A program made the translations under genes and the position numbers. DNA of 23,007 nucleotides. It comes from a virus. Below, one piece after another: positions 8,037 to 13,600 of the stretch; within the stretch, counting starts at the first letter, position 1; every line of letters starts with the position of its first letter. The notes below the pieces were generated by a model, which was given only the letters and a program-made list of their open reading frames with translations, did not search any database and was not told where the DNA came from. The DNA lies in IMG/VR virus record IMGVR_UViG_3300034518_000399, positions 1 through 23,007 of that record; one strand, 5' to 3'.

Positions 8037-8438
8037 TTATGAATTATCTGTAACTTCTGAGTCCACTTTACGATTAAATCCTATACTCTTTAACATATCT
8101 TTTTTCATTACAACTGTATCTCTATTACTTTTATAAAGTTCCCATTTACGTACACTATCTATATATGCTTTTTTATATTTAATCACATTTGGACTAATAT
8201 TAACTACCTCTTTACATTTATTATCTGTACTACCTTCACTTTTTGCATCTAGAAAAACTTGTGAAGAGATTCTTTTTAATTCCTCTTTTGCTGTTAATGA
8301 ATCTGCATATGATTCTGATGTCAACCTAGAAAATATATAAAATGATTTAACTACTTTTATATACTCACCTTCTAAATCGTCTGGATTAATATTATATAAA
8401 TCTTCCACATATTTTTCAAATTCTTTATTTAAATTCAT
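8037..8438 (-). CDS. Unknown helical protein, possible UvsY-like recombination mediator
   Basis: The 133-residue product is charged and predicted helical, without transmembrane segments. Its length is close to T4 UvsY (137 residues). Its C-terminal portion, YIDSVRKWELYKSN followed by KKDMLKSIGF, resembles the Trp/aromatic helix and 'IKSRGF' ending of UvsY. It lies next to the gp32-like gene and two genes from the RecA gene, the proteins that UvsY bridges in T4. The similarity is by eye and weak, so the call is inference from size, position and a short motif. A promoter -10 box ends six bases before ATG 8438 and no Shine-Dalgarno is present, so its message may be leaderless. Confidence 0.4.
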   Translation of the reverse strand: MNLNKEFEKYVEDLYNINPDDLEGEYIKVVKSFYIFSRLTSESYADSLTAKEELKRISSQVFLDAKSEGSTDNKCKEVVNISPNVIKYKKAYIDSVRKWELYKSNRDTVVMKKDMLKSIGFNRKVDSEVTDNS

Positions 8439-9364: not shown

Positions 9365-11719
9365 TTAACATTCTCCCCATGATTTACCTATTTTTATATC
9401 AACAAAAACATCACCTATTAAAGTGTCTTTTTCTAGTATAAGTTTAATTTTTTCAATTAAATACTCTTCATCATTATGTATAATAAAATATACAGCATCA
9501 TGTTTTGTATGTATAATTTTACTCTTTTTATCTTTTAAGAAATCATGAACTAATAAAACTTTAGACCAAAATATTGCTGAACTACCAGATTGTATAGGAA
9601 AATTAACAGACTGTCTTGTAATATCATGATCTATATCATATATTTTATACTGTGATGTTATAAATCTCCTAGTTCTACCAACCATATCAGTAATATAACC
9701 ATAATTTAAACCAAAATCACTATATTTATCTAATAAATTTTTTACTTTAGGAAACTTTCTAAAGAAATCCTTTTTTAATTCTACTGCATAATCTACAGAA
9801 ATACCAAATTCTTCACATATACTTTTAGAACCTCTACCATATAAAGTACCATAAACAACACCTTTAACTTGTGCCCATATCTCTTCATCATACTCTATAC
9901 CAGCAATTATCTTAGTTAACTGTTCTTTGGCATTTGAAGAATCTAATATTTTAATTAATTTCTTATCTTTTGATAAATATGCAGCTATTCTAAGTTCAAA
10001 CTGTTTATAGTCCATACCTACAAATTTATAATCTTTTGGTGCTATATAACAATCTCTAAATCCACCTTCTCTTGGAATTGTATGTAAAGATGAAGCTAAA
10101 CGACCACTTATTGTACCATTAAGATTATTCTCATTATGTATTTTATTATCATCTTGTAACATACAAAATAAATCATTACTAAAATCAGGTTTATAAGAAT
10201 CTAAATCTTTTAATAAAGATAATAATTGTAATTCATTATTTAATGATGTATATTTTGATATATTATCTTCAGAAATTGTCTTTGGAACTTTAATATCAAA
10301 TTTAATCTCTTTCATCAAATACGTACCTAAACTCTTAACAAGTGCTCTTGAAGTATGTAATAAATTAGGTGCTTTATGTTTAGACTTTAAAGATTTTAAT
10401 ACCTTTTCATCTGTACTATACCCACCTGATGCTGTTTTCTTATCAGATTGTAGTCCTAAAACATTAAATAATACATCACCAACCTGTTTAGGCGATTGCC
10501 AATTTATATCAGCTATATCAGTCAATTCACGCTTAATCTTAACAAGTTCCAAATTCTTATTGATATTTAATAATTTTAATTTATTAATATCAATAAGAAT
10601 TCCTTCTCGCTCTATATCTATTAACATCTGATTTACTGGCATAACAGTATTAAAAAATAACTTTGCAAAACCTTCATCTATTATTTTATTATAAAAAAGT
10701 TTATATAATCTATAAGTTACATCAGCATCAACATTATTATATTTGGCAACAACCTCCCTATCCATATCTTGCATAGATATTTTAGAAGATAAATTATAAT
10801 AAGAAACATCAGTATATAGAGAAGCTAAAGACTTCAACCCATATGAAATATTATCATTTAATATACCTATAGCAGCATACGTATCAAAGAACCAATTATT
10901 TGTATCAATATTATATCTTACTTTAAGAAATTTACAATCAAATTTTGAATGTGTAATCTTTTTAGCTGGTAGAGAAAATATCTTTTTATAATGTTCTAAT
11001 GAAAATGGTACACATATAGCAACACCCTCTTTAAATGAAAACGAACATGTTATTATATCACTTCTATATGGGTTAAGTCCTGTTGTTTCTATATCAAATG
11101 CAAATTCATCTACACTTTTTAATAATTCATATACTCTATCTATATCTTCTGTGAACAGATATTTTGTAGGTATTTGAGTATATTTACCAGATGCAACTTT
11201 AAAACCTTTATTTATATCAGATTGCATAGCATATAAATTCTTTATCACACTTAAAGATGCTTTTGGAGCAAAAGTAGGAATTACACTATATTTATCTTTT
11301 TTAAATACATACCCTCTAACATCAGATAACTTAATACTACCTAAAAAATACTTTGCTGCCATAGCACCTAAAGCAACAATAACTTTAGGTTTTATTACTT
11401 CTATCTCTTTTTCTAATAACTTAGAACATATATTTATTTCAGTTGTTTTAGGATTTACCCCACCTTTAGTATTACATTTAACTAACATTGTAGTATAAAC
11501 ATCACTTCTTTTATAACCGGCTTTTTCTATACATTCATTTAATAATGAACCTACATTACCAGAAAACGAATTACCAAATATAGAATCATTTTGACTTATA
11601 AAATCACCAACAAACATAATATTATTATTTATATTACCATTACCAGTAATACAATGTTCTCTACCTTTATTTCTATTATATTCACCTAAATTACATAAAT
11701 CACATTGTTTTTCAATCAA
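9365..11719 (-). CDS. Family A DNA polymerase with Fe-S UDG-like and 3'-5' exonuclease domains
   Basis: The protein has about 784 residues. Residues 1-175 resemble family 4 uracil-DNA glycosylases, including four cysteines placed for a 4Fe-4S cluster (Cys6, Cys9, Cys82, Cys98) and PKVIVALGAMAAKYFLG. However, the GEAPG and HP catalytic motifs are replaced (VGDFISQND, TFAPKAS). Next comes a DnaQ-like proofreading exonuclease: FDIETTG (208-214), HSKFDCKF, DADVTYRLY. The polymerase has motif A DYKQFELR (Asp570), motif B K619-x3-YG and motif C HD at about 740. In motif B a Trp occupies the place of the usual Arg four residues before the Lys. The start is taken as TTG 11719, because GGGAGG lies nine bases upstream and the upstream gene ends at the same spot. 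It is probably the replicative polymerase. Confidence 0.92.
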   Translation of the reverse strand: MIEKQCDLCNLGEYNRNKGREHCITGNGNINNNIMFVGDFISQNDSIFGNSFSGNVGSLLNECIEKAGYKRSDVYTTMLVKCNTKGGVNPKTTEINICSKLLEKEIEVIKPKVIVALGAMAAKYFLGSIKLSDVRGYVFKKDKYSVIPTFAPKASLSVIKNLYAMQSDINKGFKVASGKYTQIPTKYLFTEDIDRVYELLKSVDEFAFDIETTGLNPYRSDIITCSFSFKEGVAICVPFSLEHYKKIFSLPAKKITHSKFDCKFLKVRYNIDTNNWFFDTYAAIGILNDNISYGLKSLASLYTDVSYYNLSSKISMQDMDREVVAKYNNVDADVTYRLYKLFYNKIIDEGFAKLFFNTVMPVNQMLIDIEREGILIDINKLKLLNINKNLELVKIKRELTDIADINWQSPKQVGDVLFNVLGLQSDKKTASGGYSTDEKVLKSLKSKHKAPNLLHTSRALVKSLGTYLMKEIKFDIKVPKTISEDNISKYTSLNNELQLLSLLKDLDSYKPDFSNDLFCMLQDDNKIHNENNLNGTISGRLASSLHTIPREGGFRDCYIAPKDYKFVGMDYKQFELRIAAYLSKDKKLIKILDSSNAKEQLTKIIAGIEYDEEIWAQVKGVVYGTLYGRGSKSICEEFGISVDYAVELKKDFFRKFPKVKNLLDKYSDFGLNYGYITDMVGRTRRFITSQYKIYDIDHDITRQSVNFPIQSGSSAIFWSKVLLVHDFLKDKKSKIIHTKHDAVYFIIHNDEEYLIEKIKLILEKDTLIGDVFVDIKIGKSWGEC

Positions 11720-11999
11720 AATCAGTATCCTCCCAATAACTCTTAGGTAAAGTTTCATCTTCATCATCTAAATAAGCTCCACCAATTTTTACCTTTTGAA
11801 TCCATGCTCCATAGTATTCATCAACTGGTGTTTTATCTGAATCGCCTATTACATATTTAGCTACCAATCCACGACTATCTTTCATATGTAATTTCCAACG
11901 CTTATGTAATAACTTTATACATTCAGATTTTGTTTTACCTACTGTCATCCATTGATAATGTTCTGTATTCATAGTTAATACATAAAATGTTTTACACAT
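11712..11999 (-). CDS. Unknown 95-aa protein
   Basis: ATG 11999 follows GGGGGG by five bases, and the product begins MCKTFYVLTMNTEHYQWMTVG. It has a KTKSECIKLLHKRW helix, and an acidic end (DDEDETLPKSYWEDTDFD). Compact, soluble, no motif recognised. Its stop overlaps the TTG start of the polymerase by eight bases, so the two are translationally coupled. A longer reading frame from 12023 would overlap the previous gene and lacks this ribosome site. Confidence 0.7.
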   Translation of the reverse strand: MCKTFYVLTMNTEHYQWMTVGKTKSECIKLLHKRWKLHMKDSRGLVAKYVIGDSDKTPVDEYYGAWIQKVKIGGAYLDDEDETLPKSYWEDTDFD

Positions 12000-12570: not shown

Positions 12571-12930
12571 TTAAAAATATCTGTTGTTATTTACTGGAAC
12601 ACAACATGTTACTTTATGCCTATGTCTAGATGACATTACATTATTTTCATAATTACAACTTTGACATAATCTATTTTGTATACCGTAACTTGTAAATTGT
12701 CTACCACATTTTAAACAAACTCTATTTTTAATAGAAATATTAAATATATTTTTAGTATATAAATTAGATTCAATTTTTCTAACACCAAACTTTCTAGCGT
12801 GTTTACGACAATATTTTTTACTTGGTGCTCTAGTATATAATATCTTATCACAACCTTCATACATACAAGGTTTTTTAATAATCTTTCTTTTTAAAAACAT
12901 CTTTCTTCTTCTTTTATACAACTCGTTCAA
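12571..12930 (-). CDS. Small zinc-ribbon protein, 119 aa
   Basis: It contains two Cys clusters. The first is CMYEGCDKILYT with a later CRKH. The second is CLKCGRQFTSYGIQNRLCQSC, a Cys-x2-Cys...Cys-x2-Cys zinc ribbon of the kind common in phage genomes. The N-terminus is very basic (YKRRRKMFLKRKIIKK), suggesting nucleic acid binding. The preferred start is TTG 12930, because GAGGGGGG lies four bases upstream; ATG 12900 is an alternative without a clear ribosome site. It is the first gene after the non-coding island and a candidate promoter/operator, so it may head this transcript and may be regulatory. Function inferred only from composition. Confidence 0.65.
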   Translation of the reverse strand: MNELYKRRRKMFLKRKIIKKPCMYEGCDKILYTRAPSKKYCRKHARKFGVRKIESNLYTKNIFNISIKNRVCLKCGRQFTSYGIQNRLCQSCNYENNVMSSRHRHKVTCCVPVNNNRYF

Positions 12931-12952
12931 TATACCCCCCTCAATAAAATAA

Positions 12953-12981
12953 ATTAAATACTTGATATTTAAATCAAGCAA
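12953..12981 (-). promoter_or_regulatory. Candidate minus-strand promoter
   Basis: TTGCTT (12976-12981) and TTTAAT (12953-12958) are separated by 17 bases on the minus strand, about 20 bases ahead of the TTG start at 12930. The -10 is good and the -35 weak. A palindrome overlaps the spacer. Confidence 0.35.
12961..12978. promoter_or_regulatory. Palindrome CTTGAT-N6-ATCAAG, candidate operator
   Basis: Two perfect 6-bp half-sites flank an AT-rich hexamer, 18 bp in all, the size of a dimeric repressor site. It lies across the spacer and -35 of the candidate promoter at 12953-12981. Confidence 0.4.
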
Positions 12982-13057
12982 AAATTATTAAATTTAAACA
13001 AATATTTTTTATCATAAGTATTACTATAACAAAGATTTAAAAAAAATTTAAAAAAAC

Positions 13058-13087
13058 TTGACTTTTTAACTAAAAATATGTTATAAT
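13058..13087 (+). promoter_or_regulatory. Strong plus-strand promoter
   Basis: TTGACT (13058-13063), an 18-base spacer and a perfect TATAAT (13082-13087) with TG at 13079-13080 form an extended -10 promoter. The predicted start is near 13094. The AACTTGACTTTTT block matches that of the promoter at 8445-8473, yet this copy points against all confident genes in the window. Confidence 0.75.
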
Positions 13088-13098
13088 AGGTAGAAATA

Positions 13099-13182
13099 TT
13101 TTTCTTTCACGAAAGAAAAAACATTCAAAGAATGTTATTTTGTTTTTTCTTGAGTGTTTTTTTGCGTAGCAAAAAAAATCAC
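13099..13182 (+). ncRNA. Hairpin-rich leader or small RNA downstream of the plus-strand promoter
   Basis: Three tight hairpins follow one another: 13099-13108 with 13111-13120 (10 bp), 13120-13126 with 13130-13136 (7 bp, loop AAA), and 13157-13165 with 13169-13177 (9 bp, loop GTA). An alternative 10-bp pairing of 13113-13122 with 13142-13151 excludes the first and encloses the second, so the transcript could switch between two folds. This resembles an attenuator or a small structured RNA. On the minus strand the second hairpin runs into T-rich sequence and could end transcription of the gene at 13265-13600. No known RNA family recognised. Confidence 0.45.
13120..13136 (-). terminator. Weak minus-strand terminator candidate
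   Basis: The stem AACATTC/GAATGTT with loop TTT runs directly into four further T then C-TTT on the minus strand. The AT-rich stem makes it weak. It would end the transcript carrying the gene at 13265-13600. Confidence 0.35.
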
Positions 13183-13296
13183 CTTTTACTATGCTATTAC
13201 TTTTACACCAAACATGTACTTTATGCTTTGCGATTTGCGTTGGGTTTCCCTTTCATTTTTCAAATTAAAAACTATCAACATTGTCCTTTTCAGTAA
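13132..13296 (+). CDS. Doubtful 54-aa plus-strand ORF
   Basis: The first ATG of the predicted plus-strand transcript (13132) opens 54 codons to TAA at 13294. The product begins MLFCFFLSVFLRSKKNHLLL and is hydrophobic and basic. No good ribosome site is visible, and the first codons lie within the hairpins. Its 3' end overlaps the convergent minus-strand gene by 32 bases. Base composition around 13200-13255 (GCTTTGCGATTTGCG, TGGGTTTCCC) is unlike the rest of the window. It could equally be untranslated. Confidence 0.15.
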   Translation: MLFCFFLSVFLRSKKNHLLLCYYFYTKHVLYALRFALGFPFIFQIKNYQHCPFQ

Positions 13297-13600
13297 GTAT
13301 ACAATATTTATCAGTTGTTTTATTATAAAGCAATTTTGCATTACCATTACATCTGAATAAATTATATGAAATTAATGACTCCAGCTTTGAACCATACCAT
13401 AGCATAATATAATGTTCATCATTCTCCTCATCCCAGTTGTGTTTATCAAATTCTGTTTCTTCTTTAACTACAGTATATTTTTCTTTATTTAAAAAATAAT
13501 TACTCTCTGTAGCAGTAATATATAAATAATTTTTAATATCGTCTGCTGTAAGCAAATTACGGATCCAGGAATCAGATTGATAGTCCATTAAATCTTTCAT
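13265..13600 (-). CDS. Unknown 111-aa protein
   Basis: ATG 13600 has AGGAGA seven bases upstream. The product begins MKDLMDYQSDSWIRNLLTAD and is acidic, with several aromatic residues (HYIMLWYGSKLESLISYNLF). No domain or membrane segment recognised. It is the last gene before the non-coding island, and the plus-strand promoter in that island would make RNA antisense to its 3' end. Confidence 0.7.
   Translation of the reverse strand: MKDLMDYQSDSWIRNLLTADDIKNYLYITATESNYFLNKEKYTVVKEETEFDKHNWDEENDEHYIMLWYGSKLESLISYNLFRCNGNAKLLYNKTTDKYCILTEKDNVDSF

What the first reader, a model, noticed from the sequence alone, without database searches (positions are those of the whole stretch)
13058..13182. 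Opposing strong promoter with a switchable hairpin leader
A near-consensus extended -10 promoter points against every confident gene and leads into hairpins at 13099-13120, 13120-13136 and 13157-13177. A 10-bp alternative stem (13113-13122 with 13142-13151) excludes the first hairpin. This could be a regulatory RNA, an attenuator, an antisense RNA to the gene at 13265-13600, or a primer transcript for an origin.
Basis: partly seen in the sequence, partly recalled or inferred. Interest (0 to 1): 0.7.

Follow-up and report, generated by a model that had tools for sequence, protein, structure and literature searches.

The report
Conserved opposite-strand phage small RNA
A family of uncultured marine viruses of bacteria keeps, beside its DNA-copying genes, a very strong promoter that points the wrong way and appears to make a short folded RNA whose shape has been preserved by evolution although no gene lies in front of it.

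Summary
The promoter (TTGACT-18-TGTTATAAT, 13058-13087, +) is the best sigma70-type site in the window and all confident genes lie on the other strand. All four stems exist at the stated coordinates. Across three related phages 10 of 27 pairs change on both sides and stay paired (0/500 shuffles). The early hairpins H1 and H2 persist too, so the refolding order is conserved. Four more distant lineages keep an opposing promoter at the same place, each followed within about 130 nt by a CGTAG, always on the promoter's strand (p 2e-8, unbiased 5-mer test). The neighbouring gene 13265-13600 is absent there, so antisense control of it is not the conserved role, and no plus-strand gene exists to attenuate. 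Best reading: a phage-encoded structured small RNA, comparable in layout to lambda OOP. An origin-linked transcript is the main rival; GC skew gives it no support. Rfam has no match. Transcription itself is untested, and the target is unknown.

The parts
13058..13087 (+). Extended -10 sigma70-type promoter TTGACT-18-TGTTATAAT
   Evidence: best site of the window, L034 and L035 contigs, tied best in 66.7-kb G001; both hexamers identical in L034 and L035
13039..13057 (+). A/T tract directly upstream of the promoter, UP-element-like (inference)
   Evidence: Sequence
13094..13094 (+). Predicted transcription start (7 nt after the -10), inferred
   Evidence: Promoter geometry; not measured
13099..13120 (+). 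H1: early hairpin, excluded by P1
   Evidence: 9-bp equivalents in L034 and L035
13120..13136 (+). H2: AACATTC-AAA-GAATGTT followed by ATTTTGTTTTTT, weak terminator-like
   Evidence: one C-G to U-A compensatory change in L034
13108..13156 (+). P1: long stem 13108-13123/13141-13156 with a tandem G.A/A.G mismatch; followed by U7
13157..13177 (+). P2: TTTTTTTGC-GTA-GCAAAAAAA hairpin; its 5' arm is the U7 that follows P1
   Evidence: arms rewritten but paired in L034 and L035
13165..13169 (+). CGTAG, the only 5-mer shared at this significance downstream of the promoter in all lineages
13179..13183 (+). TCACC directly after P2; TCAC follows the second stem in L034, L038, L045, L046 (not L035)
   Evidence: noted after the fact
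12962..12981 (.). Dyad between the promoter and the next minus-strand gene, operator-like; role unknown
   Evidence: Conserved block in L034 and L035

Best explanation
The site is a gene for a short, structured, non-coding phage RNA. Host RNA polymerase with its housekeeping sigma factor starts near 13094 and reads rightward, against all phage genes. H1 and H2 form first; once the U-rich 3' arm is out, P1 replaces H1, and P2 can form next to it if transcription continues. The RNA probably ends in the U7 after P1 (about 70 nt) or shortly after P2 (about 90 nt). It most likely acts as a regulatory small RNA during infection, laid out like lambda OOP: short, opposite-strand, own promoter, beside the replication genes. 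Shown: promoter sequence, opposite orientation, compensatory changes, same position in seven lineages, shared CGTAG. Inferred: that it is transcribed, its ends, its refolding in the cell and its regulatory action. Not known: its target or partner.
For: Best promoter of the window, of the L034 and L035 contigs, and tied best of 66.7 kb in G001, each time pointing against the genes. Identical -35 and -10 at 77-88% nucleotide identity. 10 of 27 pairs compensatory, 0/500 shuffles, slid controls at most 3; RNAalifold recovers the same structure. A model built from W and L034 finds L035 at E 6e-9 with correct pairing. Plus-strand polarity: the tandem G.A/A.G in W and L035 becomes G-C/A-U in L034, favourable on this strand only; CGTAG lies on the promoter strand in 7 of 7. 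Distant lineages L038, L043, L045, L046 keep promoter, place and CGTAG. Promoter with at least 5/6 in -35, TGn-10 and CGTAG within 150 nt occurs only at this locus in the family and never in 1.7 Mb of other loci.
Against: No transcript data. Only three genomes align well enough for base-pair counting, and L035's row was fitted to the model. The model does not significantly find the four distant lineages (only a weak hit, E 6.6, at the right place in L038), and L045's fold is no better than shuffles (z +0.4). No convincing terminator: H2 has two G-C pairs and P1 is mostly A-U. No target found; GGTGA, which would pair with the TCACC tail, is not in the ribosome-binding sites of the window's genes.
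Confidence: 0.55

Rival explanations
1. Origin-linked transcript: the RNA, or the act of transcription, opens or primes a replication origin in this intergenic region, as proposed historically for lambda OOP and known for T7 and T4 origins (general knowledge).
For: Lies among primase, helicase and polA genes; AT-rich (22% GC); the largest non-coding gap of the 42-kb relative G002 and among the larger ones in G001; hairpin-rich; kept when neighbouring genes change.
Against: No skew change at the site in G001 or G002; no iterons recognised; compensatory changes and GA mismatches point to the RNA itself; for lambda a review reports that OOP does not prime DNA synthesis (PMC12197685).
Confidence: 0.2
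2. Transcriptional interference or insulation: the opposing promoter and the hairpins, which can work in both directions, stop read-through from the upstream minus-strand operon into the polA cluster; the RNA product itself does nothing.
For: The two transcripts would be convergent; H2 read on the minus strand is followed by TTTTCTTTC; lambda pO lowers converging pR transcription (PMC3985674).
Against: Does not need P1 and P2 kept by paired changes with a strand-specific GA motif, nor CGTAG on one strand; the stems are weak terminators.
Confidence: 0.13
3. A small hydrophobic protein is encoded on the plus strand (54 aa, ATG at 13132 to about 13296), with the hairpins as its leader.
For: ORFs of 54, 55 and 59 aa begin at similar places in W, L034 and L035; only 3% of shuffles give one of 51 aa or more in W.
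Against: W and L034 differ by 2-, 1- and 7-nt indels inside it, so parts are read in different frames; the L035 peptide does not resemble the W one; no good ribosome-binding site; absent in L038, L043, L045, L046; T-rich strands give hydrophobic peptides by default.
Confidence: 0.07
4. Cis-antisense RNA against the gene 13265-13600.
For: Convergent orientation; read-through would overlap that gene's end.
Against: The gene is found only in W, L034 and L035, while the promoter is in all seven lineages; P1-P2 ends about 85 nt before the gene.
Confidence: 0.03

Closest known systems
Lambda OOP RNA (promoter pO)
   Same: Short phage RNA from its own promoter, transcribed against the neighbouring genes, next to replication genes; once suspected to be a replication primer.
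   Different: 52 bases of oop overlap the end of cII (PMC5869508); here the structured core overlaps no gene. No sequence relation was tested. No cII, O or P homologue was noted here.
P22 sar RNA, lambda aQ RNA, PAK_P4as antisense RNAs
   Same: Small phage opposite-strand RNAs (PMC12197685).
   Different: Those are tied to a named gene that they oppose; here the adjacent gene is not conserved.
HK022 put RNA (from general knowledge)
   Same: Two adjacent stem-loops right after a strong promoter.
   Different: put modifies polymerase for downstream genes on the same strand; none exist here. No sequence test was made.
Attenuator leaders
   Same: Mutually exclusive hairpins with a U-rich stretch.
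   Different: No regulated gene downstream on the plus strand; the competing stem contains the U-rich stretch itself.

Membership tests
Phage-encoded structured small RNA | Own promoter in an intergenic region | tested here: met
   conserved in relatives
Phage-encoded structured small RNA | Secondary structure kept by compensatory changes | tested here: met
   10 pairs, 0/500 shuffles; three close genomes only
Phage-encoded structured small RNA | No conserved protein-coding frame | tested here: met
   Frame-shifting indels and no common ORF over seven lineages; a small ORF in the three close genomes is not fully excluded
Phage-encoded structured small RNA | Discrete transcript with defined ends | not testable with these tools
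   Needs RNA data
Lambda OOP-type antisense RNA | Overlap with a conserved target gene on the other strand | tested here: not met
   Core ends about 85 nt short of 13265-13600, which is missing in other lineages
Lambda OOP-type antisense RNA | Intrinsic terminator ending the RNA | tested here: inconclusive
   H2 and P1 are followed by T-rich stretches but are A-U-rich; the terminator scan lists none here
Attenuator or riboswitch leader | Regulated gene downstream on the same strand | tested here: not met
   No conserved plus-strand gene
Known Rfam family | Match above gathering score | tested here: not met
   None in the window; chance-level scores only in the region
Replication origin with RNA primer | Replication starts here | not testable with these tools
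   GC skew shows no change, which does not exclude it

The most novel reading that the evidence does not exclude
A previously undescribed phage RNA family, defined by an opposing extended -10 promoter, a refolding P1 stem and a CGUAG hairpin, that is needed for genome replication (origin activation or priming) across a whole family of marine phages.
Probability: 0.2. Interest if true: 0.7.

Novelty: new member of a known kind. Interest (0 to 1): 0.45.

Why it matters
Structured RNAs of uncultured marine phages are little charted. This one is kept at the same place while the protein genes around it change and diverge to about 54% identity, so it probably matters to the phage. If confirmed it gives a new RNA family to model and search, and a concrete site at which to ask how these phages control or start DNA replication.

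Tried and rejected
Rfam at gathering and relaxed thresholds: nothing. Near-DNA match in annotated phages: none; the closest phage polymerases are below 30% identical. Genome contigs with the polymerase alignment: only distant hits at 20-32%, so the host stays unknown. Patterns for the promoter and for H2 across viral contigs brought unrelated contigs and no new member; a scan with the g8037 alignment gave no new lineage. Attenuator: rejected, nothing downstream. Antisense to 13265-13600: rejected as the conserved role. Pairing of the TCACC tail with ribosome-binding sites: no GGTGA there. Origin by skew: no signal. A covariance model for all seven lineages was not possible: the model from the close genomes does not reach the distant ones significantly.

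Full report
WHERE IT IS. The window is a 23-kb fragment of an uncultured phage held as a virus record. All confident genes are on the minus strand: SbcCD-like (identified by eye), helicase, DnaB-like helicase, primase, a small gene 13265-13600, then the intergenic region 12931-13264, a small protein with zinc-binding-type cysteines (12571-12930), two small genes, a family-A DNA polymerase with an N-terminal uracil-DNA-glycosylase-type domain, a gp32-type single-strand binding protein, RecA (by eye), terminase and portal. Relatives come from viral contigs of metagenomes; that the habitat is marine, partly oxygen-poor, is recalled from the metagenome numbers, not tested. The host is unknown.

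THE OBSERVATION. The promoter TTGACT-18-TGTTATAAT at 13058-13087 (+) is present and is the best site on either strand of the window. The 10-bp alternative stem is the centre of a 16-position stem, P1 (13108-13123 with 13141-13156), which has a tandem G.A/A.G mismatch near its base and is in the minimum-energy structure, with P2 (13157-13177) directly next to it.

CONSERVATION IN CLOSE RELATIVES. L034 (87.7% nucleotide identity) and L035 (77%) keep both promoter hexamers and the TG unchanged. The arms of P1 and P2 change but stay complementary. P1 is CACgaAAGAAAAAACA/TGTTTTTTCTTgaGTG in W, 17 unbroken pairs in L034, and CTTCgaAAGAAAAACA/TGTTTTTCTTgaGAAG in L035. P2 is TTTTTTTGC-GTA-GCAAAAAAA in W, TTTAAATTTGC-GTA-GCAAATTTAAA in L034, and CTAAuAAATTGC-GTA-GCAATTTTTAG in L035. 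On the alignment of three, 93.7% of cells pair and 10 of 27 pairs change on both sides; no shuffle of 500 reaches these values, and sliding the partners by 1-3 columns leaves at most 3 such pairs. RNAalifold, which predicts its own structure, returns the same two helices. The caveat is that L035 was aligned by the model built on the other two.

THE SWITCH. Folding growing prefixes shows the same order in all three genomes: H1, then H1+H2, then P1 once the 3' arm is out at 59-65 nt, then P2. So the mutually exclusive stems are kept, but as a folding order. P1 contains the U-rich stretch after H2, so it cannot act as a classical anti-terminator ahead of it. P1 itself is followed by U7 in W, and that U7 is the 5' arm of P2. 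I read this as a weak terminator with occasional or regular read-through; that step is inference.

DISTANT RELATIVES. Genomes whose polymerase is 54-58% identical (L038 with copies in six contigs, L043, L045, L046) also have an opposing promoter in the gap ahead of the same small-gene/polA cluster. In L038 it is a perfect TTGACA-17-TGTTATAAT. L043 aligns to W over 171 nt through promoter and stems (63%, E 7e-7), although its -35 is poor. L038 and L046 fold into a hairpin followed by a longer stem; the folding z-score is -2.8 for L046 and -3.0 for L043, only -1.6 for L038, and +0.4 for L045. An unbiased count of all 5-mers in the 150 nt after the promoter in five independent lineages gives CGTAG as the best by far (5 of 5, p 2.2e-8 before correction for 1024 words; the best of 60 random control sets reaches 1.6e-4). 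It is on the promoter's strand in all seven genomes. The combination of a good -35, TGn-10 and CGTAG within 150 nt is unique to this locus in the family and absent from 1.7 Mb of other loci, whose base composition differs. The model from the close genomes does not significantly find the distant ones, so I claim the same kind of element at the same place, not a proven single RNA family, for those four.

WHAT IT DOES. The adjacent gene 13265-13600 is found only in the close genomes; other lineages have other neighbours. Cis-antisense control of that gene is therefore not the conserved role. There is no gene on the plus strand to attenuate. A 54-59 aa ORF exists on the plus strand in the three close genomes but has frame-shifting indels between W and L034 and no counterpart elsewhere. 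The paired changes, the GA mismatches that are good only in plus-strand RNA, and the one-sided CGTAG all point to an RNA product. I therefore favour a small regulatory RNA. In layout it resembles lambda OOP, whose promoter also runs against the early genes beside the origin and affects replication by opposing pR (PMC3985674; PMC5869508). An origin-linked role is the main rival: the place fits, but GC skew shows no change there in the 66.7-kb and 42.4-kb relatives, which is weak evidence either way.

NOVELTY. Rfam has no match and the annotated phage collection has no similar DNA. Small opposite-strand phage RNAs are a known kind; this is a new one, supported by covariation and by position. Without transcript data it stays a strong candidate.

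Noticed in passing
window 8473-8445 (-); G001 58282, G002 19533, G004 4404: A second strong promoter TTGACT-16/17-TATAAT, in gene direction, ahead of the gene 8037-8438, kept in nearly all relatives; its 53 bp resemble the opposing promoter (76%).
   Followed up: partly
L045 about 4160-4080, L046 about 3950-3870, L038 about 4340-4290 (ncRNA strand): Shared block around GGTACACACTYATTTTATT, followed in L045 and L046 by TTAAGCAGACAAATCA, beyond the second stem (E 6e-8); not seen in the window.
   Followed up: partly
window 12962-12981; L038 and L043 at the same place: Dyads (ACTTGATATTTAARTCAAGY; TTGACAY..RTGTCAA) between the opposing promoter and the next gene, operator-like.
   Followed up: no
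L045 about 4220-4140 and 3560-3480: Tandem copies of AAATAAGAAGAAAG (about six) and a tRNA-like sequence next to the element.
   Followed up: no
window 9365-11767: Family-A DNA polymerase with a fused N-terminal uracil-DNA-glycosylase superfamily domain.
   Followed up: no
window 13265-13600: Small protein with a sub-threshold Pfam hit to the Card1 CARF domain (E 7e-4, below the gathering score), only in the close genomes.
   Followed up: no
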